From a virus, in the IMG/VR virus record IMGVR_UViG_3300013004_000058, positions 1 to 52,716 of that record: 52,716 nt of DNA. One strand, 5' to 3'. Shown in pieces: positions 38,792-52,716 of the stretch. The stretch's first letter is position 1, and each line of letters begins with the position of its first letter. Position numbers and translations under genes: made by a program. The notes beneath the pieces are model-generated. The model did not search any database. It was given only the letters and a program-made list of their open reading frames with translations, and was not told where the DNA came from.

Positions 38792-41700
38792 ATGAACGTT
38801 ACTTGCTCAGCACAAACTTGTCCTGTAATATTAGATTCGACCTGCGTATTCTATGAAGGTCCTAATCTAATATGCTCTGGTATTAATACCAATGACAATC
38901 TTGAAACCATAATTGAAAAACTTAATGATGCCATCTGTGGCTCAGGACTATATGGTACTTCTGGTACCAGTGGTGCATCTGGTACTAATGGATCTAGTGG
39001 TGTCTCTGGGTCTTCTGGTACATCAGGATTAACAGGTTCTTCTGGTACCTCTGGTAAAACAGGAACATCTGGTACAAATGGTACCTCAGGTTCGTCTGGT
39101 AACAATGGTTCATCAGGCACTTCAGGTTCTTCTGGAAGTTCTGGATCTAGTGGTAAAGCAGGTACTTCTGGTACAGCTGCAACTAGTGGTACTGGTGGCA
39201 GTTCTGGTTCATCAGGTAGTTCTGGTACATCAGGATCTTCAGGTAGCTCAGCTTCTTCAGGTAGTTCAGGTTCTTCTGGTATCTCAGGTGATAGATATGC
39301 AACAATATCTAGTAGCACATTTACATTAGGTAGTGCAGGTTCTATTGTTGTTGGATTAGGCTTAGCTTATACAGCAGCACAGAACGTAATCATAGCATAT
39401 AATGCAAGCAATCATCAAACCTCTGAGGTTATTTCTTATAATGCTTCAACAGGTGTTTTAACCTTTGCAGCTCCTACAGACGTTGTTGGTTCTGGAACAT
39501 ATTCAATATGGACAGTAAACCTAGCTGGAGCAGCAGGTGGTGATGGATCAAGTGGTACTAGTGGTAGTGCTGGAACCTCAGGTTCAGTTGGTACTTCTGG
39601 TTCTTCTGGTACATCAGCTTCTTCTGGTAGCTCTGGTACAAATGGTAGCTCTGGAACAGATGGATCTTCTGGAACATCTGCAACTGCAGGTACATCAGGA
39701 AGTTCTGGTAGTTCTGGTAGTTCTGCAACAGCAGGAACCTCTGGTTCTACTGGTACATCAGGTTCTGCTGGAACAAGTGGTACAACAGGTACCACTGGAA
39801 CGAGTGGTACAACTGGAACAAGTGGAAGCAGTGGTACATCAGCATCTTCTGGTACTGTAGGAACTAGTGGAACATCTGGTAAAGATGGTTCTACTGGAGC
39901 AGCAATTGCTAACTGGTATGGTCAATGGCATTCAGCAACTACACAACAAGTTCTTGCTGCAGACACACCAACAGTTTGGTCTTATACTTTTACAGACATA
40001 GCATATGGTATTACATTAGTTTCAGGTACAAGACTTGAAGTGGCATACCCTGGACAATATGAGTTTGCTTTCTCAGCACAAGTTGATAAACAAACTCCTG
40101 GTTTAGCTACAGTATTTATTTGGTTAAGAGTAAATGGTGTAGATGAACCTAATAGTAAATCTTCTTTAGAATTGAATGGTCAAGAAGAAGAACAACTTCC
40201 ATACGTAGGATATTTCTTAGATTTAGTAGCAGGTGATTATGTTGAATGGGTATTTGCTTCTTCTGATGCAACAGTTAGACTTAAGGCTGTCCCAGCAACA
40301 GCAACTCCTGCTAATCCATATAATTCTCCTTTTGCTCCATCAGTTATTGTTTATGCTAAACAAATTGGTGTAGCAGTGAGTGGTACTTCAGGTACCAATG
40401 GTACATCAGGAAGTTCTGGTACAAGTGCTGCAGATGGTACAGCAGGTACGTCTGCTTCTTCTGGATCTTCTGGAACTTCAGCTACTGCTGGAACAGATGG
40501 GTCTAGTGGAACTGATGGCTCTTCTGGTACTTCTGGATCAAGTGGAACTTCAGCATCTTCTGGATCAAGTGGCACATCAGCTACTGCTGGTACATCAGGT
40601 ACAACTGGTACTGATGGAAGCTCAGGAACTGATGGTTCTAGTGGTACGTCTGGTTCTAGTGGTACATCAGGTTCATCTGCAACATCAGGTTCTTCTGGAA
40701 CTGATGGTAGCTCAGGAACAGCTGGTACAGATGGAAGTAGTGGTACAGATGGAAGCAGTGGTACGTCTGGCACTGATGGCTCAAGTGGTACTTCAGCAAG
40801 CTCAGGTACATCAGCAACAGCTGGTACTTCAGGTTCTTCAGGAACAACAGGCACCTCAGGTACAACTGGTACTTCTGGTACAACAGGTACAGATGGGTCT
40901 AGTGGTACTGATGGATCTAGTGGAACAGATGGTAGCTCAGGTACAAGTGGCACTACAGGTACAAGTGGTACAAGTGCAACAAGTGGATCTAGTGGATCTT
41001 CTGGAACAGATGGTTCATCTGGCACAGATGGTTCTTCAGGTACTAGTGGTACAGATGGTTCATCTGGAACAAGTGGAACAAATGGTACTGATGGTTCATC
41101 AGGCACTGCTGGAACAAGTGGAACAAATGGTACTGATGGTTCTAATGGAACTTCAGGATCAAGTGGTACAAATGGTTCAAGTGGTACAGATGGCTCTTCA
41201 GGCACTGATGGAAGTTCTGGTACTTCAGGTACAAGTGCTTCTGCAGGTACTGCTGGTCTTTCTGGAACAAGTGGATCTAGTGGTACTACAGGTACAGATG
41301 GTTCAAGTGGTACTTCAGGTACAACAGGAACTGATGGAAGCTCTGGTACTTCTGCATCTAGTGGTACTAGTGGAACAAGTGGAAGTTCTGGCACATCTGG
41401 TACATCAGGTACTGATGGTAGTTCAGGAACATCAGCTAGTTCAGGTACAGCAGGTCTTTCTGGAGACTTATACAAAACAACATCTAGTAGTAGTTTAGCA
41501 ATAGGAATTGGTACAAAAAATCTTACTGTTGGTACAGGACTTGCATATACTGTAGGACAGGCTGTAGTTATTGCTTATGATGGAAGTAATAGCATGGGTG
41601 GTGATCTTATTTCTTATGATTCTGGTACAGGTGCAATGTCAGTTAATATCACTGCAACTACTGGTTCTGGTACATACACAGCATGGCAAGTAAACTTAGG

Positions 41701-42568
41701 TGGTGCTGCTGGAGGTGATGGTACTTCTGGAACCTCAGGATCTAGTGGTACTACTGGTACTAGTGGCACTGATGGATCAAGTGGAACAAGTGGAACTGAT
41801 GGATCAAGTGGAACTTCTGCTTCTTCAGGCACTTCAGGCACCTCTGGTTCTTCAGGAACAAGTGCTACGTCTGGAACATCAGGATCATCTGGTACTTCTG
41901 GTTTACAAGGTTTGGATGGTAACTTAGCTAGTTGGAGAATATCAAGTTCTACAGATACAAGTACAGATCCAGGCAGTGGTTTCTTTGCTCTTAGCAGTGG
42001 CTTGACTTGGGGTACAACTACAACAAGCATTGCTATTGACAACATATCTTATGACCCAGCAATTAACTTCTCATCTTACCTTGACTATTTACAACCTAAC
42101 ACAGTACTTAAGATAGTTAAGAATGATGATAAGAATACATATAAAATATTATTAATTACAGCAAGAGATCCATTGGAGCCTGGCTTTGAGCAGTTCTCTG
42201 TTTCACAGATTGCTTCTGCAGGTCCTGATCCAGATGCTAGTGATGTATTCTATTTTAACGTTATTGGTGTAAGTGGATCTTCTGGTACTGCTGGAACAAG
42301 TGCATCTGCAGGTACAAGTGGACAAGATGCTACATCAGGAACTGATGGTTCATCTGGTACTAGTGGAACCTCTGGTTCATCTGGAACTAGTGGATCAGCA
42401 GGTACAAGTGCATCTTCTGGTACTTCTGCAAGCTCTGGTTCAAGTGGCACAGCTGGAACATCTGGTTCTTCTGGAACTGCAGCGTCTTCTGGAACTGCAG
42501 CAACATCAGGAGAAACATCAGTATACTCAGGAACAAGTGGAACAACAGAAACCTTACCTCCTGCTTAA
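38792..42568 (+). CDS. Giant beads-on-a-string collagen-like fibre protein
   Basis: 1,258 residues. Residues 1-50 form a Cys-containing anchor (FYEGPNLICSGINTNDNLE) like that of the fibre at 304. Gly-X-Y stretches dominated by GTS, GSS and GTD triplets then alternate with four globular beads: a beta domain at about 166-247 (GDRYA...VNLAGAAGG), a C1q/TNF-like jelly-roll candidate at about 368-529 (YGQWHSA, GQYEFAFSAQV, VFIWLRVNGV, LVAGDYVEW), a second copy of the first bead at about 890-971 (GDLYK...VNLGGAAGG) and a different bead at about 1038-1160 (LASWRISSST). There is no S74 chaperone at the end, which reads ETLPPA. Almost every residue outside the beads is Gly, Ser, Thr or Asp, a dense potential O-glycosylation target. 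Probable role: long flexible virion fibre. Confidence 0.75.
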   Translation: MNVTCSAQTCPVILDSTCVFYEGPNLICSGINTNDNLETIIEKLNDAICGSGLYGTSGTSGASGTNGSSGVSGSSGTSGLTGSSGTSGKTGTSGTNGTSGSSGNNGSSGTSGSSGSSGSSGKAGTSGTAATSGTGGSSGSSGSSGTSGSSGSSASSGSSGSSGISGDRYATISSSTFTLGSAGSIVVGLGLAYTAAQNVIIAYNASNHQTSEVISYNASTGVLTFAAPTDVVGSGTYSIWTVNLAGAAGGDGSSGTSGSAGTSGSVGTSGSSGTSASSGSSGTNGSSGTDGSSGTSATAGTSGSSGSSGSSATAGTSGSTGTSGSAGTSGTTGTTGTSGTTGTSGSSGTSASSGTVGTSGTSGKDGSTGAAIANWYGQWHSATTQQVLAADTPTVWSYTFTDIAYGITLVSGTRLEVAYPGQYEFAFSAQVDKQTPGLATVFIWLRVNGVDEPNSKSSLELNGQEEEQLPYVGYFLDLVAGDYVEWVFASSDATVRLKAVPATATPANPYNSPFAPSVIVYAKQIGVAVSGTSGTNGTSGSSGTSAADGTAGTSASSGSSGTSATAGTDGSSGTDGSSGTSGSSGTSASSGSSGTSATAGTSGTTGTDGSSGTDGSSGTSGSSGTSGSSATSGSSGTDGSSGTAGTDGSSGTDGSSGTSGTDGSSGTSASSGTSATAGTSGSSGTTGTSGTTGTSGTTGTDGSSGTDGSSGTDGSSGTSGTTGTSGTSATSGSSGSSGTDGSSGTDGSSGTSGTDGSSGTSGTNGTDGSSGTAGTSGTNGTDGSNGTSGSSGTNGSSGTDGSSGTDGSSGTSGTSASAGTAGLSGTSGSSGTTGTDGSSGTSGTTGTDGSSGTSASSGTSGTSGSSGTSGTSGTDGSSGTSASSGTAGLSGDLYKTTSSSSLAIGIGTKNLTVGTGLAYTVGQAVVIAYDGSNSMGGDLISYDSGTGAMSVNITATTGSGTYTAWQVNLGGAAGGDGTSGTSGSSGTTGTSGTDGSSGTSGTDGSSGTSASSGTSGTSGSSGTSATSGTSGSSGTSGLQGLDGNLASWRISSSTDTSTDPGSGFFALSSGLTWGTTTTSIAIDNISYDPAINFSSYLDYLQPNTVLKIVKNDDKNTYKILLITARDPLEPGFEQFSVSQIASAGPDPDASDVFYFNVIGVSGSSGTAGTSASAGTSGQDATSGTDGSSGTSGTSGSSGTSGSAGTSASSGTSASSGSSGTAGTSGSSGTAASSGTAATSGETSVYSGTSGTTETLPPA
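38955..39285 (+). repeat. Collagen-like coding repeat, block 1 of the giant fibre
   Basis: Gly-(Thr/Ser)-Ser triplet-coding DNA between the anchor and the first bead, with a nine-base periodicity that varies at third codon positions. Confidence 0.8.
39535..39895 (+). repeat. Collagen-like coding repeat, block 2 of the giant fibre
   Basis: Gly-X-Y triplets ([12 protein letters not shown]) between the first bead and the C1q-like domain. Confidence 0.8.
40378..41460 (+). repeat. Collagen-like coding repeat, block 3 (longest, about 360 residues)
   Basis: Uninterrupted Gly-X-Y triplets with a recurring GTDGSSGTDGSSGTS-type higher-order unit. Long antisense and +1-frame ORFs here are by-products of the repeat. 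Confidence 0.85.
41710..41905 (+). repeat. Collagen-like coding repeat, block 4 of the giant fibre
   Basis: Gly-(Thr/Ser/Asp)-Ser triplets between the second GDxY bead and the LASWR bead. Confidence 0.8.
42271..42530 (+). repeat. Collagen-like coding repeat, block 5 of the giant fibre
   Basis: C-terminal Gly-X-Y stretch with more Ala (GTA, GTSAS), ending just before the last bead-free tail. Confidence 0.8.
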
Positions 42569-42577
42569 TAAATAAAT

Positions 42578-43891
42578 ATGCCTTACAGTAATTTAACTTT
42601 TAATATTTCCCTGAATAAAGAGTTCAACACTAATGACTTTGTCAAAGTGGCTCATGATGGGAATAACTATATCACAGGAAGGGTTGTATCTTACAATCCT
42701 TCCACTGGTGCATTGGTTGTTGAACCTTATGAAGTTGTAGGTAGTGGTACTTACAGCAGCTGGAACGTTTCCTTAACAGGATTCAATGGTTCAGCTGGAA
42801 CTTCTGGTTCATCTGGTACATCAGGAACAACTGGCACAAGTGGATCTACAGGTACATCTGGTACAGCAGGTACTGCAGCAACAACAGGAACAGATGGTAG
42901 CTCTGCTACTTCTGGTAGTTCTGGTGATGCAGGTTCTTCTGCAACTAGTGGAGACAGTGGTTCTTCAGGAACTTCAGCCTCTTCTGGTACAGCTGGAACA
43001 GCAGGAACAGCAGGATCAGATGGATCTTCTGCAAGTTCAGGTACAAATGGTACATCAGGAAGTACTGGTTCTTCTGGTACAAGTGGTGGAATAGGTACAA
43101 GTGGCAGTTCTGGAAACTCTGGTAGTACTGGAAACTCTGGTGCTAGTGGTGGAAGTGGAACTTCTGGATCAAATGGAGCAACTGGACCTCAAGGTCCAAT
43201 AGGTCCCCAAGGACCTCAAGGTGCACAAGGTGGTAAAGGTCCATCAGGTGTAAATGGTGGTACAGGACCTCAAGGTGGTACAGGCCCAACAGGGGCACCA
43301 GGAGGAACAGGTGCAGCAGGTGCACCAGGACCACAAGGTCCAACTGGCCCTCCAGGACCTCAAGGACCCACTGGTGGTCAAGGTGGTACTGGTCCTACAG
43401 GTGGTGCAACATCGTATAATCAAAACTTAAATACTAATGGTAGTGTTGTATTTGGTAATTGTGCGATGCCTGCCAATGCTAATACTAGTAGTAGATTGTA
43501 TGTTGGAAACTTTGGTAGACTAGTGTCATCTGCAAATCAAGGAGTTCCTTGGACAGGATATAATGATGGTTGGTATACAGTTGGTGCTTTAGGAGCAGCG
43601 TTTTTCTTTAATACATCTTCTAGAACAGCAAAAGAAAATATAATACCATTTTCTCCATCAGCAGTAGAAATATTGAATGAAGTAGATATAGTTTCATATA
43701 ACTATGAAGTAGACCAAAATGATGAAGATACAAGAATAGGGTTCATAGCAGAAGATACTCCAACTATTTTATCTGGTAATAATAATGATAGAATGGACAC
43801 AATTAGTGTTATTGGATTAGCTTTGAAATCCATTCAAGAAATAGATAAAAGAATAACCAACCTAGAAAATATAAAGAATAATGCCATCTAA
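42578..43891 (+). CDS. Collagen/S74 tail fibre, paralogue A
   Basis: 437 residues. Residues 1-68 are a beta bead ([44 protein letters not shown]) related to the internal beads of the giant fibre. A Ser/Thr-type Gly-X-Y shaft follows (about 70-200), then a Pro/Gln-type shaft (about 200-280; [18 protein letters not shown]). The chaperone domain starts near 345 with SSRTAKENI and continues IGFIAEDTP before a short terminal coiled coil. The Ser and Lys of the S74 self-cleavage motif are kept, but SDxR is changed to SSR. It starts ten bases after the giant fibre. Probably a trimeric fibre with alternative tips among the three paralogues. Confidence 0.82.
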
Positions 43892-45164
43892 TATGACCTT
43901 TAACATAAATCCTGGACTAGCATATCTCCCTGGAGATAATGTACAACTTAGCCATGATGTTAATAACTATGTCATTGGTACTGTTGTATCATATAATCAA
44001 GGTACAGGAGTATTAGTAATTGCTCCAACTTTATCAAGAGGTACTGGTACATTTAGTACATGGACTGTTAGTTTAACTGGTGTTGTAGGTTCCTCAGGTA
44101 CAGCAGGATCTGCTGGCTCTTCTGGAAAAGCTGGAAAGAGTGGAAGCTCTGGTAAAGATGGAGCTCCTGGTCAATCTGGTAGTTCTGGTAAAGCTGGTAG
44201 TTCTGGATCTGCTGGTACTGCTGCTACATCAGGCACTGCAGGTACTACAGGAACTGCAGGTACACATGGTCAAGCAGGTTCTTCTGGAAAGGGAGGAGAA
44301 AATGGTAAATCAGGAAACAGTGGTAAGTCTGGTTCTTCTGGAGCTGCTGCATCTAGTGGTAACTCAGGTGGGTCTGGAAACAGTGGTAAGTCTGGGTCTA
44401 GTGGAAATAGTGGAACAGCAGGTTCTAGTGGTAAATCAGGAGCAAGTGGTTCTTCAGGATCAAGTGGTAAATCAGGAGCAAATGGAGCAACTGGACCACA
44501 GGGTGCACAGGGTCCAATAGGAGCACAAGGTCCTACAGGTGCTGGTGGAACAAGTGGTGCACAAGGTCCTACTGGTGCACCAGGTCCAACAGGGGCACAA
44601 GGTCCAAGAGGTCCACAAGGTGGTACTGGTCCTCAAGGGGGTGGTGGTCCACAAGGTCCAACAGGACCAACAGGTGCAACAGGACCTACAGGTCCTCCAG
44701 GAGGAACAGGTCCACAAACTGTTTACAATCAATTATTGAACACAGATAGTAATGTTTCATTTGCTACTACAGGTAGTGCAGGAGAAGTATTTACTGCTTC
44801 AGATTTTAATGTTGCACCTGGAACTGGTATAGTTTCTGGAGGTAACCAAGGTATTGGATGGTTAGGTACTGGTAATTGGCAAACATTTGGAGCTTGCGGT
44901 TCTACAAACTTTTTCAGTACTTCTTCTAAAATATATAAAAAAAATATTCAACCATATTCTCCTTCTGCTGTAAAAATTATAAATGATGTTAACATTGTTT
45001 CTTTTAATTATATAGATTATGAGCATACTAAAGTTGGATTTATTGCAGAAGATACTCCAGTTGAACTATCAACAGAAAAACAGGATAGCTTAGATACAAT
45101 GAACTCACTTGGACTAATATTAAAAGGGTTACAAGAATTAAATAGTAGAATAGATAAATTATAA
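43881..45164 (+). CDS. Collagen/S74 tail fibre, paralogue B
   Basis: 427 residues with the same plan as its neighbours: N-terminal bead ([28 protein letters not shown]), a Gly-X-Y shaft rich in Lys ([17 protein letters not shown]) and then Pro/Gln triplets (GPQGAQGPI), a head domain and an S74-type chaperone from about 348 ([25 protein letters not shown]). The regular Lys in the shaft distinguishes it from paralogues A and C and would be the natural target if any collagen-type lysine modification occurs. The start at 43881 overlaps the upstream gene by 11 bases; the next in-frame ATG (43893) would avoid this, but the first start keeps the MP-SN motif of its relatives. Confidence 0.82.
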
Positions 45165-45174
45165 AATAATTAAA

Positions 45175-45537
45175 ATGATAGTTAATTACACATTTAAAAT
45201 TTCAAGTTGGCATTTAATCCCACATATAAATGGGTTAGACAATGTTATACAAAGAGTAGATTGGGTTATTGTTGGAGAAACAATAGATGCCAATGGTAAA
45301 ACTCATACATGGGACCATACTCAGACAACAACTATTAAATTTGATGATACTGCTGATTTTATTTCAGCTAATGAGTTAACTCCTGAAGTTGTTCAATCTT
45401 GGGTTTTTGAAATTGAAAATAGGAAACAAAGAAACATTGATTGGATTAAAGAAAACATTATTTATAAAAGACTTGATGAGAAAGTAAATCCAGCAATTGC
45501 AAAAATTGTAAAACCTTTTTGGGAGCAACAACAATAA
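45175..45537 (+). CDS. Small conserved phage protein (DUF7936-like)
   Basis: 120 residues: a beta-rich first half (YTFKISSWHLIP, VIQRVDWVIVGE) and a helical second half (LTPEVVQSWVFEIE). The layout of an N-terminal strand, a VDWxIxGE-like strand and a VxxWV helix recalls small proteins of unknown function (DUF7936-type) found next to tail fibres in many phages. No catalytic motif, signal or membrane segment. It lies ten bases after paralogue B. A fibre-assembly or attachment role is a guess from position only. Confidence 0.5.
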   Translation: MIVNYTFKISSWHLIPHINGLDNVIQRVDWVIVGETIDANGKTHTWDHTQTTTIKFDDTADFISANELTPEVVQSWVFEIENRKQRNIDWIKENIIYKRLDEKVNPAIAKIVKPFWEQQQ

Positions 45538-45544
45538 ATAAACT

Positions 45545-46171
45545 ATGCCATACTCTAATATGACATTCACTGTCACCACAGGTTTAGCTTTTGTAGTTAA
45601 TGACTTTGTTCTAATATCTGCTGTTGATACAACTACAACCACTACAACATCGCCTATTGTAGATTGTGTTGAGTTTGTAAACATTGAGGTAACAGGAGCA
45701 GGTAATGTAACTTATTTAGATTGTAATGGAAATCCACAATTACAAAATGTAGGAATAGGACCAGAAGTAATTGGAACATCATTATATTGTGTTCAATGGA
45801 GTACATTAAGTGGAACTGCAACGTTTACTATTGATAGTCTTGGTCCTAGTTGTACACTAACTACAACTACTACAACTACTACAATTAACACAACTACCAC
45901 CACATCTACAACTACTGTTGCACCTACAACAACTACAACAAGTACAACTACTACAGAAGCACCTGTATATTACAATATATTAGATTGTGGAAATAGTTCT
46001 ACTGCATTCTCAATATTATATGCTGCTGGAACATTTGCAACTAGTGAAAGATGTACTGCAGTTGCAAGTGGTTTCCCAACAAGAACAGTAATTATTATTG
46101 GTAGCACAACAACATTACCTGGTGGTCCTTTATATACATTAACTTCACAAGGCATATTTGGTTGCCCTTAA
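45545..46171 (+). CDS. Thr-linker/Cys-domain protein starting with a truncated fibre bead
   Basis: 208 residues. Residues 1-25 (MPYSNMTFTVTTGLAF, NDFVLIS) match the first strands of the N-terminal bead in paralogues A and B, then break off into a Thr run. A ~65-residue Cys domain follows (IVDCVEF, TYLDCNGNP, LYCVQW, PSCTL), then a long Thr tract (about 105-137) and a last ~70-residue domain (YYNILDCGNSS, SERCTAV, GIFGCP) resembling the end of the gene at 13321. Nineteen bases downstream the next gene begins with the missing second half of the bead. I infer an insertion that split one fibre gene in two; the product may still be displayed on the virion. Confidence 0.6.
   Translation: MPYSNMTFTVTTGLAFVVNDFVLISAVDTTTTTTTSPIVDCVEFVNIEVTGAGNVTYLDCNGNPQLQNVGIGPEVIGTSLYCVQWSTLSGTATFTIDSLGPSCTLTTTTTTTTINTTTTTSTTTVAPTTTTTSTTTTEAPVYYNILDCGNSSTAFSILYAAGTFATSERCTAVASGFPTRTVIIIGSTTTLPGGPLYTLTSQGIFGCP
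45859..45956 (+). repeat. Long threonine-codon tract
   Basis: ACT/ACA/ACC codons interrupted by AAC, TCT and GTTGCACCT give three successive Thr runs. It is the longest such tract in the window. Confidence 0.8.
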
Positions 46172-46190
46172 TTGTTAAAATAAAAAAATT

Positions 46191-47405
46191 ATGTCTGATA
46201 ATTATATAATTGGTAGAGTTGTATCTTATAATCCCACAACTGGAGAACTAGTAGTTACTCCTTATGATGTAAAAGGGTCTGGTACATACAGTGATTGGAT
46301 TGTGTCTTTAACAGGATTTAATGGAACTGCTGGTACAGCAGGTACATCAAGTATTTCAGATTCTTCTGGTACTGCTGGTACATCTGGCACAGCTGCTACA
46401 GCTGGTACAGCAGGAGAAAGTGATAGCTCAGGTACTTCTGGAACAACAGGAACTTCTGGTTCATCAGCTACTTCAGGACAGTCACAACCAACAGGAACAA
46501 GTGGTACAGCAGGAACATCTGCAGAAAGTGGAACATCAGCCACTGCAGGCACAAGTGCAAGCTCTGGTACATCTGCTGAGAGTGGAACTTCAGGTTCTAG
46601 TGGAACTTCAGGTAGTTCAGCTACAGCTGGTACATCTGGTTCTAGTGGCACATCAGGAAGCTCAGCTAGCACAGGAACAGGTGGAACCTCTGGTTCTTCT
46701 GGAGTGAGTGGTGTTAATGGAGCTACTGGTCCACAGGGTGCAGCTGGTGGTACTGGACCAACAGGTGCAACAGGATCATCAGGTGTAAATGGTCCTACAG
46801 GTGGTACTGGTCCTGCAGGAGGTACAGGTCCACAAGGCCCACAAGGATTTCAAGGACCACAAGGTGCAACTGGTCCTGCAGGTGGTCCAGGTGGTACAGG
46901 TGCTCCAGGACCTACAGGTCCACAAGGTCCCCAAGGTCCTACAGGTAGTAATAACCAGAATTTGAATTTATATGTACCAGCAACATTTAATTCAGTTTCA
47001 ACTGGAGAATGGTATTCAAATACTAGATTTTATTGTAGTAATAATAGAGGACTCGTTGGACCATCACCAAGATGGACAGGTTATGGACCAGGTTGGTATA
47101 CTTTTGCTGCTGTAGGCTCAGTATATTTTTTTAATCCTTCTACAAGAGAGATGAAAACAAATATTCAACCTTTTACAAAATCAGCTTTAGATATTATTGA
47201 CTCTACAGAAATTGTGTCTTTTAACTACGAATTAGATGGGTTAGAAGATAATCAAAAAATTGGGTTTATTGCAGAAAATACCCCTGAAGAATTATCTACT
47301 AAAGGTCATGATAGAATGGATTATAATTCAACTATGGGTGTAATCATGAAAGCCATTCAAGAGTTAGATGCTAAATTAAAAATAAAAGAAGAACACTACA
47401 AATAA
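46191..47405 (+). CDS. Collagen/S74 tail fibre, paralogue C, with truncated N-terminal bead
   Basis: 404 residues. It starts inside the bead ([32 protein letters not shown]), lacking the first ~22 residues present in paralogues A and B; those residues occur at the start of the preceding gene. A Ser/Thr/Ala Gly-X-Y shaft and a Pro/Gln shaft (to about 255) follow, then a head region and an S74-type chaperone from about 313 (STREMKTNIQPF, IGFIAENTP) with Ser and Lys kept. It ends EEHYK, with its TAA in the loop of a 12-bp hairpin shared with the convergent gene. Whether it can still attach to the virion without the first bead strands is unclear. Confidence 0.78.
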   Translation: MSDNYIIGRVVSYNPTTGELVVTPYDVKGSGTYSDWIVSLTGFNGTAGTAGTSSISDSSGTAGTSGTAATAGTAGESDSSGTSGTTGTSGSSATSGQSQPTGTSGTAGTSAESGTSATAGTSASSGTSAESGTSGSSGTSGSSATAGTSGSSGTSGSSASTGTGGTSGSSGVSGVNGATGPQGAAGGTGPTGATGSSGVNGPTGGTGPAGGTGPQGPQGFQGPQGATGPAGGPGGTGAPGPTGPQGPQGPTGSNNQNLNLYVPATFNSVSTGEWYSNTRFYCSNNRGLVGPSPRWTGYGPGWYTFAAVGSVYFFNPSTREMKTNIQPFTKSALDIIDSTEIVSFNYELDGLEDNQKIGFIAENTPEELSTKGHDRMDYNSTMGVIMKAIQELDAKLKIKEEHYK

Positions 47406-47421
47406 CTACTTGTAGTGTTCT
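47390..47421. terminator. Bidirectional hairpin holding both stop codons of convergent genes
   Basis: AGAACACTACAA (47390-47401) and TTGTAGTGTTCT (47410-47421) are perfect 12-bp inverted repeats with an eight-base loop. The loop contains TAA of the plus-strand gene (47403-47405) and, on the other strand, TAG of the minus-strand gene (47408-47406). No intergenic space is left. Position at the meeting point of two operons supports a two-way terminator, although the flanking T runs are short. Confidence 0.65.
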
Positions 47422-48008
47422 CCTCCTACCCATAATACAAAAGATCTTCTAATACCTTTTGTAACAGGTGTCACTCTATGCATCATATATGATGGAAAGA
47501 TAAACACCAATCCTTTATCTCTTTGCACCTTTAATGCATTATTAGGATCTCCTCCTATAAAATATTCAAGATCACCACCTTCGTACTCTGAAGGATCTGA
47601 TAACTGAACTGTTACAGATATTTTTCTGGTAGATAACATACCTGGCCCAAAGTCTTGGTGCCATCCATAATGCCCATTCTCAGTGGCATGATACTCTGTA
47701 TATTGTACAGCGTCTAATACTCCAGTCAAATTAAAATTCCAAAGAGCATCATTTGCTTCTATTATCATTCCCATTAACTTATCGTACAACCACTCCCATT
47801 GTTGGGAAGGATGTATCCATTTGATTTGAGAAGATCTAACTGTAAGATCATTGTATTCATTAGAAGATCCTGTTTCTCCTGCTTTGAATGGAAGAAATGC
47901 AACGTCTGCATATATTTTATCTAGCTCTTCGTTAGAAAAACCTTCTTTAAAATAATAGTAGTTTTGAATATCTACTAACTTAGGGGGAAATATTATTGCG
48001 TTTTTCAT
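47406..48008 (-). CDS. 2-oxoglutarate/Fe(II) oxygenase, PKHD/prolyl-4-hydroxylase-like
   Basis: 200 residues. The Fe ligands are His117-x-Asp119 (GWHQDFG) and His177 (MMHRVTPV), with Arg187 (KGIRRSF) placed to bind 2-oxoglutarate; EYEGGDLEYF and KGLVFIFPS are further hallmarks of the PKHD-type group. The catalytic set looks complete, so an active hydroxylase is likely. Family members hydroxylate protein prolines or small molecules. It is the last gene of the minus-strand cassette and faces the collagen-like fibres, whose Pro-rich shafts are candidate substrates by analogy with collagen. Substrate is inference. It ends GEHYK, the same four last residues as the convergent fibre gene. Confidence 0.82.
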   Translation of the reverse strand: MKNAIIFPPKLVDIQNYYYFKEGFSNEELDKIYADVAFLPFKAGETGSSNEYNDLTVRSSQIKWIHPSQQWEWLYDKLMGMIIEANDALWNFNLTGVLDAVQYTEYHATENGHYGWHQDFGPGMLSTRKISVTVQLSDPSEYEGGDLEYFIGGDPNNALKVQRDKGLVFIFPSYMMHRVTPVTKGIRRSFVLWVGGEHYK

Positions 48009-48013
48009 ATGTT

Positions 48014-48661
48014 TTATTTTATATTGTTAAATTCTATATAGTTTGGAATATCACTTGAGATACCTAATCTTCCTTCAAAATAAGAGTTGAAAGCTAAACT
48101 TACTCTAGTATAATTACCTGTTGTAAAAGGAACAGAATGAGACAAGTCTGAAGGAAATAAAACAATATCACCATTACTCACTTTAAAAGTTGTTTGTAAT
48201 GAATTAAATTGATTCAAACTTCTAGGCTCTATGTATGTAGTTAATTTTCTATCTGAATGAAAACTAATCATATCATGTTCTTCTTGGGCACTTACATAAA
48301 TTACTCCACTTACCATACTATTAGGATGATAATGTCGTTGATGTTCTTCTTTATGTTTAGTGTAATTTAACCAAGATTGTGTTATTTTTAATCTAAATTC
48401 ATCACCATATAAAGGATCATAAACTTGTTTGCACCATTCCTTTAAACAACCTTCTGCAATTGCTTTTAAATGAACCATAACTGGCTCTTCTAGTATTCTT
48501 TTACTTTTAGTAGTGTTGTTACCTAAATAAATTTCATAAGGAGGAAGTGTAACATCTTTTTCTTTATTAAGAATAAATTCTATTTCTTCTTTTGTAAAAT
48601 TTCTACCTATGTTGAATTTTAAAATAGGAGTTGGGAAAATTTCAAAGATTTCTAACTGCAT
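48014..48661 (-). CDS. Putative 2OG-Fe(II) oxygenase, TIGR02466-like
   Basis: 215 residues from the ATG at 48661, chosen because the protein then begins MQLEIFEIFPTPIL as in the family and clears the upstream stop by five bases; an ATG at 48715 would overlap the previous gene by 49 bases. The core shows QSWLNY, HYHPNSMVSGVIYV (His110, His112), GDIVLFPSDLSHSVP (His175) and RVSLAFNS (Arg186). The double-stranded beta-helix pattern is clear, but the first ligand pair reads HxH/HxN instead of the textbook HxD. Five bases separate it from the next gene downstream. Probable role: hydroxylation step in the same modification cassette; substrate unknown. Confidence 0.72.
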   Translation of the reverse strand: MQLEIFEIFPTPILKFNIGRNFTKEEIEFILNKEKDVTLPPYEIYLGNNTTKSKRILEEPVMVHLKAIAEGCLKEWCKQVYDPLYGDEFRLKITQSWLNYTKHKEEHQRHYHPNSMVSGVIYVSAQEEHDMISFHSDRKLTTYIEPRSLNQFNSLQTTFKVSNGDIVLFPSDLSHSVPFTTGNYTRVSLAFNSYFEGRLGISSDIPNYIEFNNIK

Positions 48662-48666
48662 ATAAT

Positions 48667-49728
48667 TTATTTTATTAGATTTAAAATTGATTCTACTTTT
48701 ATTGATTTGTGACATTCAAAATGCCTAGGGGTATCTTCATGCTCAGGACACCAGTTCCAATCACCTTTGTTAAACTTAAACAGAGGATTATTCCAACAAC
48801 TGTTACATACATTAGGATTAATTATACGTGTGCAGTTAGATATAAACTCATGACCAGCTTCTGTAAAGTTAGAGATCATTATAGTATGTTTACCTACAGC
48901 CCAGTTTAACCAGCTGATACCACTAGAAAGACCAATGTAATGATCTGCATGATACAAGTAACGCATTGCATTTTGTAATGATTTATCTTCTAATGTTTCT
49001 GCACCTAAGTCATCTGCTTCCTGTGACAGTTCAAACACTCTATATCCTTTTGTTTTTAATGCTTCTATTAACTCTTTCCAATAGTACCAATGTTTACATT
49101 GTGCTGTAGAACGTGTAGATATACAAACGTACTTATCAACTACAGGTCTTTCTCCTCGATCAAAAGCAATGCGTGGATGTATCTCTTCATATTCTAGTGC
49201 TAATATATTACTAGCTGCTTGTTGTAAAGGTATTGTTGCAGGATGTGTAGGTTCTTTATGTTCATCCCAAAACCAACCAAGTTCTACCATGGCTTGGATG
49301 TTATCTACTGTTACACCTCTGCCTACAAACTCTAACTCAGGATACACAGATTCAAACAGATCATTCTTAAATGTAGATACAATCACCTTACACTTATACT
49401 TCTCTTGAAATTCATAACAGTATGGTATCCAAGCTATACTATCACCAAGACTCTTAGATTCAAATACTATAAACACTCTCTTACCTGCTAGTTCATCTAG
49501 TAAGTTTACCTGCTTTACTATGCGTCCTTCATACTTGACAAACACAGCTATATCAGATAAATACTTTCTGTTAAGTCTAACCCAAGTTCCTGGTTTTAGT
49601 TTTATATTGTAGATAGTCTTGTTATCTTTTCTATCTACAAAAGTTACATCATATTCTCTGTTCTTACCATCGTCACTTAATAGTTCAAAGAATAAACCAT
49701 TTACGTGGTGTAGTTTATAATTTATCAT
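48667..49728 (-). CDS. Autotransporter-heptosyltransferase-like glycosyltransferase (BAHT/GT9-like)
   Basis: 353 residues. Residues 1-78 form a small beta domain (VNGLFFELLSDD, KPGTWVRLNRKYLSD) as in bacterial autotransporter heptosyltransferases. The GT-B core follows with ESKSLGDSIAWIPY (91-103) and the donor-site stretch YIGLSSGISWLNWAVGK (264-280). Near the end are Cys308, Cys311, Cys327 and Cys339; CxxC then 15 residues then Cys matches the iron-finger layout I recall for TibC. TibC-type enzymes add heptose to Ser/Thr of repetitive adhesins. The phage fibres next door are Ser/Thr repeats, making them plausible acceptors. Its ATG overlaps the previous stop (ATGA). Family assignment is fairly firm; sugar and acceptor are inferred. 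Confidence 0.8.
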   Translation of the reverse strand: MINYKLHHVNGLFFELLSDDGKNREYDVTFVDRKDNKTIYNIKLKPGTWVRLNRKYLSDIAVFVKYEGRIVKQVNLLDELAGKRVFIVFESKSLGDSIAWIPYCYEFQEKYKCKVIVSTFKNDLFESVYPELEFVGRGVTVDNIQAMVELGWFWDEHKEPTHPATIPLQQAASNILALEYEEIHPRIAFDRGERPVVDKYVCISTRSTAQCKHWYYWKELIEALKTKGYRVFELSQEADDLGAETLEDKSLQNAMRYLYHADHYIGLSSGISWLNWAVGKHTIMISNFTEAGHEFISNCTRIINPNVCNSCWNNPLFKFNKGDWNWCPEHEDTPRHFECHKSIKVESILNLIK

Positions 49729-50303
49729 TTCTCTGTGTTAAAAAAGAATGTTTGAAATAGTCTACCATCTTCTAGACCTTTACCAAAGTAATCCAAAGAT
49801 ACGTGAAATAAATCACCTCTGTACATAATTAATCTATTATATACATTACCAATTCTATCTACCATCTCCCACTTAGTATAGTCTATGTGGTCTACATTTT
49901 GAGGTGCATTTTTATTTTCTTCATCTGTATGCTCTTGATATATCCAATTCTTAAGACCTGTAGCTTTATGTCTAAAGATACCTGTGCCTGCAGTTAAAGG
50001 AGCATCAGGAGTTAGATAACACACACCAGCCCAGTTAGTTGTACCATCACTATGTATCCAAGATCTATCCATAGCTGTAGTGTATTGGAATGCTCCAGAG
50101 TTAATATCTCCCCACCAAGTAACATCGCCTGCAAAAGGTCTGATTACATTCTGTATAGTTTCTTTGATGCTGTCATTAAAGAAAGGGACAGTTCTTTTAC
50201 CAGGATAGTTACCTGACTCACCAAATTCTTGACTCAAAGCAAAAGCTCTCACCTCTTCTGGATTATTATAGAAGTCTGCTATTGATAACATTTCTACTCT
50301 CAT
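49725..50303 (-). CDS. 2OG-Fe(II) oxygenase-like protein (DUF6445 type)
   Basis: 192 residues. His84-x-Asp86 (SWIHSDGTT), His167 (GDLFHVSL) and Arg181 (GRLFQTFFF) give the HxD...H...R arrangement of the double-stranded beta-helix oxygenases; WAGVCYLTP and NRLIMYRGDLFH are typical of the DUF6445-like group. This is the third oxygenase of the cassette and is clearly different in sequence from the other two. Stop and start overlaps (ATGA) link it to the glycosyltransferases on both sides, so it should be translated with them. Substrate unknown; protein or sugar hydroxylation are both possible. Confidence 0.72.
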   Translation of the reverse strand: MRVEMLSIADFYNNPEEVRAFALSQEFGESGNYPGKRTVPFFNDSIKETIQNVIRPFAGDVTWWGDINSGAFQYTTAMDRSWIHSDGTTNWAGVCYLTPDAPLTAGTGIFRHKATGLKNWIYQEHTDEENKNAPQNVDHIDYTKWEMVDRIGNVYNRLIMYRGDLFHVSLDYFGKGLEDGRLFQTFFFNTEK

Positions 50304-51313
50304 AAGTTATTGTATGCGTTTATGTATAATTGTTTTGTTCTGTCTGATGTATATCCCTCATTGATCTTCAATACATTCTCATAGTATTTATGTAGTGTCT
50401 TAGCTACAAGATCCCAACTATAGAAATCACGTACAGCTATCATCTCTTGTCTTCTATGTTCATACGTATTAATTGTTTCTACAATGCCTCTGGTCACTTC
50501 TTTTACACTGATAGAAGGTAAAACCCACATACCAGAGAAGTGTCTTGCTCCTCTATACGTTCCTACAATAGGAAGACATGCACTAGCTGCTTCACATAAT
50601 GTAAGGTTAGGATGTCCTGCTTCTAGCATAGATGGATGTAAGAATATAGTGTGTGTTTGATACAGTTCTCTAGTCTCTTCATCTGTAGGGTTTGTTAACT
50701 TTAAAGTTAACTTCTCATACTCTAATAGATCTTTATGCACCTCAAAGAACTTCTCATTGTTAGGATGACCAGCTATTGTAATAGGAAGTCCTAGTTCTTT
50801 AGCTGCTTCGATACCATATCTAAATCCTTTTCTATCAAAGCCTGAGTCACCTGCTAATCCATTGTTAGCTATCATCAATAATGCATGTGGTCTAGGAGCA
50901 GGATCATGACTAAAGAATTCTGTGTTAGCCCCATGTCTTAGATAGAACAACTTATCAGTCTCATTAAAATAGTCTATTAGATACTCAGCATGTGTGAAAG
51001 ATACAATAGATCCTTTCATAGCTTCTAGGTTTTGCTTAAACACCCAGCTATCTTTACCATACCATTCTGTGTGGTGATCATGTAGAGAGTATACATAAGG
51101 TATACCTTTGTCTCTACAGTGGATAGCCTGGTTAGCAAGGTGTGCATGTACAATTGTATCAGGCCACTTCTCTAACTCATTCATGTATTTAATCTCTACA
51201 GTGTCTCCTAGTTTCTCAAGTCCTTGTTTGTATTCCCATATAAGTCTTTCTACAGCACCCCAACCATTTGGTGGTATGGTAATTAGTCCTGTAGCTACGT
51301 GTACTACTCTCAT
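50300..51313 (-). CDS. GT-B glycosyltransferase, family 4-like
   Basis: 337 residues. The N-terminus MRVVHVATGL...NGWGAVERLIWEY is the acceptor-domain start of GT4 enzymes. VHAHLANQAI and YSLHDHHTEW follow, then DRKGFRYGIEAAKELGLP and the donor-binding region FLHPSMLEAGHPNLTLCEAAS, with Glu231 and Glu241 as the E...E pair (nine residues between instead of the usual seven). No signal or membrane segment, so it is cytoplasmic and could use nucleotide sugars of the host. It overlaps both neighbours by four bases (ATGA). Likely extends a glycan started by another enzyme of the cassette. Confidence 0.83.
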   Translation of the reverse strand: MRVVHVATGLITIPPNGWGAVERLIWEYKQGLEKLGDTVEIKYMNELEKWPDTIVHAHLANQAIHCRDKGIPYVYSLHDHHTEWYGKDSWVFKQNLEAMKGSIVSFTHAEYLIDYFNETDKLFYLRHGANTEFFSHDPAPRPHALLMIANNGLAGDSGFDRKGFRYGIEAAKELGLPITIAGHPNNEKFFEVHKDLLEYEKLTLKLTNPTDEETRELYQTHTIFLHPSMLEAGHPNLTLCEAASACLPIVGTYRGARHFSGMWVLPSISVKEVTRGIVETINTYEHRRQEMIAVRDFYSWDLVAKTLHKYYENVLKINEGYTSDRTKQLYINAYNNL

Positions 51314-52716
51314 TTTCTAAATGTTTTATGTGTGTTATCAATTAAGGAGAAACCATCTGCTTGGGTAGTAAGTCTATTATGTACAATACCCATAGGATGT
51401 CCCATAAAGATATTGTTAAAGTATATATCAGCAGCATCCCACTTGTGCTTTCTAAGCACATCTTTTAACCATGGAGCAGTCTTAATAGGGAACATAATAC
51501 ATTGTAAACCAATCACATGATCAGTAACATACATTGTTTCATTCACTTCTTTCCTTACAGGAGACTGAGGCCAGCCATGTTCTAATGTATCTTTGTCTCC
51601 AAAAGACATAATGTCTATGTTGTTTGGTCCCAATAAGTGTGCACATTCCTCAACTTTTTGTACGAAAAAGTGTATGTCTGTCTCAATAATACAATCTCCT
51701 TCACATACAATCAAGTGATCACAGTCATGGAATTCCATTAGGATGGCATTCTTGAATGCTTCGTAGCATCCATAATGTGCTGGGGTAAGTGCAGTGCCAT
51801 ACTCTTGAACTTGCTGTTCATTGAAGAGTTCCATTGAAACGCATAGTGGTCGCATACAGTTGTGAGCTGGTGGTAAAGATCTATAGGGCTCGTTAGTGTG
51901 TAGGATATATTCCCATCCATGGTCTTTGACTCTCTCAAGGGATGCTCTACTTGCTTGTTCTCTTTCATCATTTAATGTAGTTTGTATGTGAACTAATTTG
52001 ATCTTTGGTTTGTCTTTCTTCTTCCATTCAAACTTACCTGTGCTTTCATACATCTGTAAGTTGTCCTTAGTTAGTTTAAACTCTTCTACCTTGTAACATG
52101 TATCTCCATCATAGAAATCCATTCTTACATCAATAGGTTCTCCTTTGAATTCAAACTGATAAACAAGCTCATGGTTCTTAGCAGGTATGATTCTCTTCCA
52201 CATGTAGTCTGCAATAGATACATAAATGTTTCTATAGTCTCTGTTATATGTAAAGAAATAGAACACATAAGTGTTTGGTTTTCCAACAACAGGGATGATA
52301 GAATAATACTCACTATTTGATGCTACACCTAACCCACTGTTAACCAAGAACGTATGTTTGTCATTAGTAACCACTTGCACGTCATTAGGATTGAAGCTAA
52401 AGATAACCTTTGACAAATAGTCTTCTAGATAGTTCTCACATCTTCTTCTCTTACATACTTCGTTCCATTCTTCTGGTGTACGCACATCATCAAATTCTTT
52501 TAAGAAAAACTCTGTGTCAAACACAATACCATTAGTCTGAATTCCCTTACCCTGTGGTGTAGGAAGTGTAGCAGCATACAACTTCTTATCTGTTTTGAAT
52601 GCTTCATTCACTGCAGGTATGTCTTTAGAATCTAATACAACATCATATGTAGTGTAGAAGAATCTCTTGAATCCTAACTCTTTAGCAACCTTGGCACCAT
52701 TAAATATATTAGTTAA
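51310..52716 (-). CDS. Multidomain glycosyltransferase, two GT-A-like parts, second GT25-like (5' partial)
   Basis: The frame is open to the right edge (468 visible residues). A GTG at 52611 could be taken as a start, but coding sequence continues before it (FNGAKVAKELGFKRFFYTTYDVVL), so the true start is outside. Visible residues 1-120 look like part of a GT-A domain (TTYDVVL as a DxD-like site, then LYAATLP and GIVFDTEFF). A beta-rich middle follows. From about 240 a second GT-A domain appears: KIKLVHIQTTL, LTPAHYGCYEAFKNAI, then HLIVCEGDCII as the metal site. The LTPxxxGCY...hhhcEgD order recalls GT25, the family that includes bacterial LPS transferases and animal collagen galactosyltransferases. 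First visible gene of the cassette. Confidence 0.68.
   Translation of the reverse strand, partial: LTNIFNGAKVAKELGFKRFFYTTYDVVLDSKDIPAVNEAFKTDKKLYAATLPTPQGKGIQTNGIVFDTEFFLKEFDDVRTPEEWNEVCKRRRCENYLEDYLSKVIFSFNPNDVQVVTNDKHTFLVNSGLGVASNSEYYSIIPVVGKPNTYVFYFFTYNRDYRNIYVSIADYMWKRIIPAKNHELVYQFEFKGEPIDVRMDFYDGDTCYKVEEFKLTKDNLQMYESTGKFEWKKKDKPKIKLVHIQTTLNDEREQASRASLERVKDHGWEYILHTNEPYRSLPPAHNCMRPLCVSMELFNEQQVQEYGTALTPAHYGCYEAFKNAILMEFHDCDHLIVCEGDCIIETDIHFFVQKVEECAHLLGPNNIDIMSFGDKDTLEHGWPQSPVRKEVNETMYVTDHVIGLQCIMFPIKTAPWLKDVLRKHKWDAADIYFNNIFMGHPMGIVHNRLTTQADGFSLIDNTHKTFRK

What the first reader, a model, noticed from the sequence alone, without database searches (positions are those of the whole stretch)
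38792..52716. Candidate phage 'collagen maturation' system: collagen-like fibres beside three oxygenases and three glycosyltransferases
Four collagen-like proteins (38792-47405, plus one at 304) face a translationally coupled minus-strand cassette of a GT25-like enzyme, a GT4-like enzyme, a heptosyltransferase-like enzyme and three distinct 2OG-Fe(II) oxygenase-like proteins. In animals, collagen is matured by 2OG prolyl/lysyl hydroxylases and GT25 galactosyltransferases; in bacteria, TibC-type enzymes O-glycosylate Ser/Thr repeats. The fibres here offer Ser/Thr in most X/Y positions, some Pro (GPP, GAP) and, in paralogue B, regular Lys. The sequence shows the genes and motifs; the substrate link is inferred from position. 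If true, the virion carries hydroxylated, glycosylated collagen-like fibres made by its own enzymes.
Basis: partly seen in the sequence, partly recalled or inferred. Interest (0 to 1): 0.85.

Follow-up and report, generated by a model that had tools for sequence, protein, structure and literature searches.

The report
Phage kit that sugar-coats collagen-like fibres
A crAss-like aquatic phage carries collagen-like tail-fibre genes made almost only of glycine, serine and threonine beside its own enzymes of a kind known to attach sugars to serine, and the pairing recurs in unrelated phages, so it is probably a phage-encoded way of coating, and perhaps strengthening, virion fibres.

Summary
The genes are real. 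The window is a 52.7-kb Crassvirales fragment with five collagen-like ORFs. One enzyme (48667-49728, -) is a true TibC-family protein O-heptosyltransferase: above the curated cut-off, with catalytic Asp, Lys and four iron-finger Cys conserved. The truncated 51310-52716 protein has a GT25 fold; top solved matches include human collagen galactosyltransferase COLGALT1. Comparative tests split the idea into two associations.

(1) TibC goes with Pro-free, Ser/Thr-rich Gly-X-Y fibres: 23 of 28 non-redundant viral TibC loci with both flanks of at least 6 kb, nearly always tail-to-tail, plus two unrelated phages (Mel-JY01 and a 735-kb phage). Among Crassvirales the orthologous fibre is collagenous in 12/12 TibC+ and 0/3 TibC- genomes.

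(2) Only the 47406 oxygenase family is independently linked to collagen (27/34 clusters; 16/22 without TibC). Its prolines are almost all at X, not Y. Oxygenase B shows no independent link; C is cassette-bound. All three are optional.

Glycosylation is well supported, hydroxylation moderately; no modification has been observed. The cassette also occurs with Thr/Pro-rich tail proteins, so the substrate rule is probably hydroxyl-rich repeats, not collagen as such.

The parts
304..2367 (+). collagen-like fibre, 687 aa (fifth collagen-like gene, near the ring-protein genes)
   Evidence: Pfam Collagen 2.5e-32, weak Peptidase_S74; X/Y 66% Ser/Thr
38792..42568 (+). main fibre, 1258 aa: conserved head, then Pro-free G-T/S-S Gly-X-Y shaft with non-collagen inserts; proposed O-glycosylation substrate
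   Evidence: Pfam Collagen 9e-79; 80% Ser/Thr at X/Y; conserved head and same-locus test
42578..43891 (+). collagen-like fibre A with Pro at X and S74 chaperone C-terminus
43881..45164 (+). collagen-like fibre B with Pro and Lys at X and S74 C-terminus
45175..45537 (+). small protein between the fibres, DUF7936
   Evidence: Pfam 36.6 bits, cut-off 27; kept in G008 and G011
45545..46171 (+). Thr-rich protein (26% Thr, poly-Thr tracts); possible further O-glycosylation substrate
46191..47405 (+). collagen-like fibre C with Pro at X and S74 C-terminus
47382..47429 (.). inverted repeat at the tail-to-tail junction of the fibre and enzyme operons; codes the C-termini of both genes; terminator-like on the - strand
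47406..48008 (-). oxygenase A, 2OG-Fe(II) family (HxD...H...R); in relatives the last gene of the fibre operon
   Evidence: PF13640 1.2e-13; phrog_61; motif H117, D119, H177, R187; co-location with Pro collagens
48014..48661 (-). oxygenase B, 2OG-FeII_Oxy_5 / phrog_81; start corrected from 48715
48667..49728 (-). TibC-family protein O-heptosyltransferase
   Evidence: TIGR04414 247.5 bits, cut-off 200; PDB TibC 9e-41; catalytic and iron-finger residues conserved
49725..50303 (-). oxygenase C candidate, DUF6445 / phrog_1644, HxD...H...R pattern
50300..51313 (-). GT4-type glycosyltransferase
   Evidence: Glyco_trans_1_4 at 27.3 bits, cut-off 27; conserved next to TibC, 65-83% identical in crAss relatives
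51310..52716 (-). GTx, C-terminal 468 aa of a protein of about 885 aa cut by the contig end; C-terminal GT25-fold domain
   Evidence: model pLDDT 84.5; Foldseek COLGALT1 4.5e-8; many viral GT25 proteins

Best explanation
The minus-strand cassette is a fibre-maturation module. TibC (48667) uses ADP-heptose, or a similar sugar supplied by the host, to O-glycosylate Ser/Thr in the Pro-free G-T/S-S shaft of the main fibre and probably in other Ser/Thr-rich fibre segments. GT4 (50300) and GTx (GT4 plus GT25-type domains, 51310) extend the sugar. In relatives, FkbM methyltransferase, sulfotransferase and APS-kinase genes could cap it. Oxygenase A, normally the last gene of the collagen-fibre operon, modifies the Pro-containing S74 fibres, most simply by hydroxylating Pro at X. 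Oxygenases B and C are optional, with unknown targets. The glycan probably stabilises and shields a collagen-like rod that has no Pro or Hyp to hold it. Shown: genes, family features, co-occurrence, orientation, same-locus match. Inferred: activity, sugar, acceptor residues, benefit.
For: TibC membership with all key residues. Ser/Thr-rich Gly-X-Y fibre at 23/28 well-flanked viral TibC loci; fibre 3' of TibC in 31/31 positive clusters and on the opposite strand in 30. Reverse test 21/32. Unrelated phages Mel-JY01 and the 735-kb phage. Same-locus contrast 12/12 against 0/3. GT25 fold. OxyA next to Pro collagens in 27/34 clusters, 16/22 without TibC, same strand in 26/27, against oxygenase B 2/30 without TibC. 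Purifying selection on all six enzymes.
Against: No modification has been measured. One TibC subclade lacks collagen, as does the 636-kb phage locus. 11 of 32 GTS-fibre contigs show no TibC, though many are fragments. Pro is at X, not the Y favoured by known collagen prolyl 4-hydroxylases. Distant OxyA relatives are not near collagen. Tests are not corrected for phylogeny, and the TibC- set is small, with two near-identical members. The Gly-to-Ala substitutions leave the triple helix itself unproven. The phage source of nucleotide sugar is unknown.
Confidence: 0.7

Rival explanations
1. The glycosyltransferases remodel the host cell surface (lipopolysaccharide or O-antigen), for example to block superinfection, and lie near fibres only because host-interaction genes cluster.
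For: GT4, GT9 and GT25 families are common in lipopolysaccharide synthesis, and phage glycosyltransferases near tail fibres have been read this way (PMC7029224). Relatives carry a further GT9 gene.
Against: TibC is a protein glycosyltransferase family by sequence and key residues. Presence tracks the shaft type of one orthologous fibre gene, and the same pairing recurs in unrelated phages in a fixed tail-to-tail orientation.
Confidence: 0.12
2. The cassette glycosylates hydroxyl-rich repeats of tail proteins in general; collagen-like fibres are only the commonest substrate and the collagen fold plays no part.
For: TibC phages without collagen have Thr/Pro-rich tail proteins; the window also has a 26% Thr protein; known TibC substrates are beta-helical, not collagen (PMC4358343).
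Against: Most TibC loci have Gly-X-Y fibres, and the shaft swap at one locus is between collagenous and other. It differs from the best explanation mainly in breadth.
Confidence: 0.4
3. A full animal-like pathway: lysyl or prolyl hydroxylation followed by GT25 galactosylation of the hydroxylated residue.
For: GT25 fold with COLGALT1 among the top solved matches; three oxygenases adjacent; Mimivirus L230 shows such chemistry in a virus (PMC9614988).
Against: The main fibre has about 1% Lys at X, none at Y, and no Pro; Lys in paralogue 43881 is at X; the GT25 domain is missing in G013, which keeps GT4, TibC and the fibre; oxygenases are absent from most cassettes that have GTx.
Confidence: 0.06
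4. The oxygenases act on something else (DNA, small molecules, host proteins) and their position beside collagen-like genes is incidental.
For: 2OG oxygenases are common in aquatic phages; distant OxyA relatives in cyanophages sit by helicase genes; oxygenase B is not linked to collagen without TibC.
Against: The close OxyA subfamily is co-directional with and usually just downstream of collagen-like genes in many clusters, also without TibC.
Confidence: 0.4

Closest known systems
TibC/Aah bacterial autotransporter heptosyltransferases (BAHT, TIGR04414)
   Same: Family score above cut-off; catalytic Asp and Lys and four iron-finger Cys conserved; Ser/Thr-rich repeat partner encoded alongside
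   Different: In phages, partner is a collagen-like fibre instead of a beta-helical autotransporter; often fused to or beside GT4 and GT25-type enzymes; separate clade from most bacterial members
Mimivirus collagen modification (L230 lysyl hydroxylase/glucosyltransferase)
   Same: Virus with its own collagen-like proteins and enzymes; GT25-type glycosyltransferase and 2OG oxygenase
   Different: Mimivirus acts on Lys at Y; here the main fibre has almost no Lys or Pro, the linked enzyme is TibC-type, and oxygenases are optional and separate
Glycosylated BclA collagen-like spore proteins of Bacillus
   Same: Ser/Thr-type O-glycosylation of a bacterial collagen-like protein, thought to aid stability (PMC8968730)
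   Different: Cellular, other enzymes, Pro-containing repeats
Virion glycosylation in mycobacteriophages (Freeman 2023, as cited in PMC12619734)
   Same: Phage virion proteins carry glycans
   Different: Capsid and tail-tube C-termini there; fibre shafts and a different enzyme set proposed here

Membership tests
BAHT / TibC (TIGR04414) | curated family score | tested here: met
   247.5 bits, cut-off 200
BAHT / TibC (TIGR04414) | catalytic Asp (D110) and Lys (K230) | tested here: met
   window D96 and K212, invariant
BAHT / TibC (TIGR04414) | iron-finger, four Cys | tested here: met
   C308, C311, C327, C339, invariant
BAHT / TibC (TIGR04414) | heptosyltransferase activity on Ser/Thr of a protein; dodecamer | not testable with these tools
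   needs biochemistry
BAHT / TibC (TIGR04414) | autotransporter (beta-helix) substrate nearby | tested here: not met
   partner is a Gly-X-Y fibre; membership is of the enzyme family, not of the autotransporter system
GT25 | GT25 fold | tested here: met
   Foldseek COLGALT1 4.5e-8 and many viral GT25 proteins; whole-model TM-scores low because of several domains
GT25 | curated sequence match | tested here: not met
   no window match in Pfam; 2 of 31 relatives at best E 0.004, so only 'GT25-like fold' is claimed
2OG-Fe(II) oxygenase, collagen prolyl hydroxylase type (OxyA) | 2OG superfamily with HxD...H...R | tested here: met
   PF13640 52 bits, cut-off 27; H117, D119, H177, R187 invariant
2OG-Fe(II) oxygenase, collagen prolyl hydroxylase type (OxyA) | closest to prolyl 4-hydroxylases | tested here: not met
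   nearest solved relatives are PKHD/PiuC; prolyl 4-hydroxylase only at E 0.084
2OG-Fe(II) oxygenase, collagen prolyl hydroxylase type (OxyA) | Pro at Y of Gly-X-Y in the neighbouring fibre | tested here: not met
   Pro almost all at X
Collagen triple helix | long Gly-X-Y periodicity | tested here: met
   156 triplets against at most 9 in shuffles; Pfam Collagen
Collagen triple helix | folded triple helix | not testable with these tools
   Pro-free, and Ala at about 10% of Gly positions
Crassvirales | crAss ring and muzzle proteins | tested here: met
   CrAss_Ring_1, CrAss_Ring_2, crAss_MUZ 109 bits, all above cut-offs

The most novel reading that the evidence does not exclude
Aquatic phages of several unrelated lineages carry a mobile fibre-maturation kit: TibC-type O-glycosylation (extended, in some methylated or sulfated) stabilises Pro-free G-T/S-S collagen rods, while a separate oxygenase hydroxylates Pro at X in sister fibres. 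This would be a sugar-stabilised, hydroxyproline-free collagen and a prokaryotic-virus counterpart of animal collagen maturation.
Probability: 0.35. Interest if true: 0.92.

Novelty: new variant of a known kind. Interest (0 to 1): 0.78.

Why it matters
Phage glycosyltransferases are usually guessed to act on DNA or host lipopolysaccharide; this gives a concrete virion substrate and a rule (Ser/Thr-rich fibre, TibC tail-to-tail) that holds in several phage lineages. It also offers a purpose for some of the '2OG oxygenase' and 'prolyl hydroxylase' auxiliary genes common in aquatic phages, whose use was called cryptic (PMC9301287). If the sugars hold the fibre together, it would be a new way to stabilise a collagen-like rod without proline or hydroxyproline.

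Tried and rejected
Chance periodicity in the fibres: rejected. Full animal pathway on Lys: rejected for the main fibre. All three oxygenases as core parts: rejected, absent from most TibC+ loci. OxyA structure from five sequences: model too poor to use. The Mel-JY01 terminase scan was meant as a neutral control; it samples one clade only. OxyA relatives in cyanophage S-SCSM1, Pelagibacter phage HTVC008M and the 735-kb phage, and an OxyC relative in S-SSM7: no Gly-X-Y within 10-12 kb, so the OxyA link is shown only for the close subfamily. Inversion of OxyA through flanking inverted repeats: no convincing pair found. Literature searches found no paper on phage TibC-type enzymes or glycosylated phage collagen-like fibres; the library lacks most subscription journals and preprints.
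Full report
WHAT THE WINDOW IS. The window is a 52.7-kb linear IMG/VR virus record. Crass ring proteins 1 and 2 and the crass muzzle protein pass Pfam cut-offs, so it belongs to Crassvirales. No tRNA was found. Related contigs of up to 118 kb were found through ring protein 2, searched for TibC, and 16 were fetched and read.

THE OBSERVATION. Five collagen-like ORFs and the six minus-strand enzyme ORFs are present. The main fibre (38792) has 156 perfect Gly-X-Y triplets in runs of 8 or more against at most 9 in 500 shuffles. Its X/Y positions are 80% Ser/Thr with 0% Pro. The three S74-chaperone fibres (42578, 43881, 46191) carry Pro at X (18-19%) and little at Y (2-4%). Ala replaces Gly in about 10% of main-fibre triplets. 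The enzyme ORFs overlap by ATGA in the upstream half. The fibre and enzyme operons meet tail to tail at 47405/47406 in an inverted repeat that codes both C-termini.

THE ENZYMES. ORF 48667 is a TibC-family O-heptosyltransferase: TIGR04414 at 247.5 bits against a cut-off of 200, solved TibC at E 9e-41. Catalytic D110, K230 and the four iron-finger cysteines of TibC (eLife 03714) map to window D96, K212 and C308/311/327/339, all invariant in nine diverse phage members. GTx (51310) is the C-terminal half of an 885-aa protein cut by the contig end; relatives carry an N-terminal GT4 domain. A 31-sequence model reached pLDDT 84.5. Its top solved matches are a glycosyltransferase dimer (9u7i) and human collagen galactosyltransferase COLGALT1 (E 4.5e-8, prob 1.00), followed by other glycosyltransferases; the viral library returns many GT25 proteins. 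TM-scores over the whole model are low (about 0.34) because it holds more than one domain, so the claim is a GT25 fold for the C-terminal domain and not a specific activity. Pfam gives no significant match. ORF 47406 is a 2OG-FeII_Oxy_3 protein, 48014 a 2OG-FeII_Oxy_5/phrog_81 protein, and 49725 a DUF6445/phrog_1644 protein with an HxD...H...R pattern. All six enzymes show purifying selection against G011 (dN/dS 0.16-0.22).

TEST 1: DOES TibC TRACK THE FIBRE? A profile scan of IMG/VR gave at least 545 TibC relatives, of which the best 80 were kept. They form 48 non-redundant clusters; 34 have a Ser/Thr-rich Gly-X-Y ORF within 10 kb, and 23 of 28 with both flanks of at least 6 kb. In a second clustering the fibre lies 3' of TibC in 31/31 positive clusters, on the opposite strand in 30. 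Bacterial TibC homologues: 4/46, and two of those four (L257, L258) look like phage contigs. Reverse test: 21 of 32 contigs of at least 40 kb, chosen only for a DNA pattern coding [10 protein letters not shown] repeats, encode TibC. Control: terminase loci of a Mel-JY01-like clade, 4/59 with any Gly-X-Y and none with TibC.

TEST 2: UNRELATED PHAGES. Of 50,697 annotated phage records only four encode a TibC relative. Microcystis phage Mel-JY01 has a GT4-methyltransferase-TibC fusion 1.7 kb from an 805-aa GTS fibre. The 735-kb phage LR756501 (with LR756503, a record of the same length and match) has GTx and a GT4-TibC fusion next to a GTS fibre. The 636-kb phage LR756504 has TibC without Gly-X-Y within 20 kb.

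TEST 3: SAME LOCUS, WITH AND WITHOUT. The main fibre has a conserved head. Its orthologue holds 47-257 Gly-X-Y triplets in 12/12 TibC+ genomes (the window included) and none in the three TibC- genomes with complete fibres (G022, G024, G025), whose shafts are of another kind. Fisher p 0.002 without phylogenetic correction; G022 and G024 are near-identical. Further fragments agree: G031 has both, and G023 has no Gly-X-Y near its fibre head and no TibC.

TEST 4: THE OXYGENASES. Among TibC clusters with Gly-X-Y, those with oxygenase B or C all have Pro-containing fibres (5/5), while of 24 clusters with no oxygenase one does; for any oxygenase p is 0.0015, uncorrected. Independent scans: oxygenase A clusters lie near Gly-X-Y ORFs in 27/34, all with Pro, and in 16/22 without TibC. 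In 26/27 the nearest one is on the same strand and in 24/27 upstream. In the window OxyA is flipped into the enzyme operon, whereas in G004, G008 and G011 it follows the fibre on the fibre strand. Oxygenase B without TibC: 2/30. Oxygenase C: 9/10 clusters inside TibC cassettes. Controlling for distance, A against B differs at 3 and 9.5 kb (p 0.04 and 0.013) and not clearly at 6 kb (p 0.086). That all OxyA-linked collagens contain Pro is partly trivial, since ordinary phage collagens often do (G022 type).

WHAT IS CORE. GTx-GT4-TibC is the conserved core; the oxygenases are accessories. In G016 and G018 a GT4-type domain and TibC are fused in one chain of about 1130-1180 aa. In G013 the GT25 domain is missing. 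Beyond the window's end, relatives carry GT9, FkbM methyltransferase, sulfotransferase and APS kinase genes; the sulfation genes also occur in genomes without TibC, so they are not tied to the fibre.

PHYLOGENY. Phage TibCs form one clade (100/97), which also takes in four loci from genome assemblies, apart from 42 bacterial ones; fibre-positive members are spread across it. One subclade (99/91: L221, L223, L230, L247, L253) lacks Gly-X-Y, and those examined have TP-repeat tail proteins instead. So the shared feature of substrates is probably hydroxyl-rich repeats rather than collagen as such.

MECHANISM, WITH STATUS. (i) TibC initiates on Ser/Thr of the shaft: inferred from family, co-occurrence and composition. 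(ii) GT4 and GTx extend: inferred from conservation, fusion and fold. (iii) OxyA modifies Pro-containing fibres, perhaps at X: inferred from independent co-location; a Bacillus prolyl 4-hydroxylase accepts both X and Y (PMC8968730). (iv) Purpose: stabilising and shielding a Pro-free rod; inferred, by analogy with BclA. Nucleotide sugar is assumed to come from the host; no ADP-heptose pathway was identified in the phages.

COMPARISON AND NOVELTY. Virus-made modified collagen is known in Mimivirus (PMC9614988), and virion glycosylation in mycobacteriophages (cited in PMC12619734). A TibC-family enzyme paired with Pro-free collagen-like phage fibres, and a separable oxygenase-collagen link, were not found in the literature available here. 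I file it as a new variant of a known kind.

Noticed in passing
L230, L247, L253 (TibC loci): TibC phages without collagen carry tail proteins with TPTPTNTPQPT-type repeats and, in L247 and L253, a row of small genes that look like 2OG oxygenases; possibly a second, mucin-like substrate class.
   Followed up: partly
L172 15423-19173; G005, G008, G010, G016, G018, G025, G027: Just beyond the cassette in relatives lie sulfotransferase, APS kinase, CTP-transferase-like and small DUF2061-like genes, suggesting phage-encoded sulfation; not tied to TibC.
   Followed up: partly
L198, L212, L222: Proteins of about 3,100 aa with 850-950 Gly-X-Y triplets, 85-94% Ser/Thr at X/Y, lie 0.4-0.7 kb from TibC.
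   Followed up: no
L260 8636-9019 and 9818-11065; L256 3510-4859: Bacterial MAG contigs with a TibC relative near a small GSSGTSG-repeat protein; in L260 it follows a lipoprotein-like start. A possible cellular version of the pair.
   Followed up: no
window 47406-48008 against G004, G008, G011: Oxygenase A is inverted in the window relative to close relatives, where it follows the last fibre gene on the same strand; no clear inverted repeats flank it.
   Followed up: partly
L707 10001-11306 (Synechococcus phage S-SSM7): A DUF6445/oxygenase C relative overlaps a GT25 gene within a large sugar-nucleotide and glycosyltransferase cluster.
   Followed up: no
G012 36556, G004 64973, G005 68949, G008 64665, G018 6076: A separate small collagen-like gene sits at a second position, next to a gene of 338-407 aa; TibC-negative G022, G024 and G025 carry a low-Ser/Thr (7-10%) GIQ/GPQ-type collagen-like gene.
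   Followed up: no
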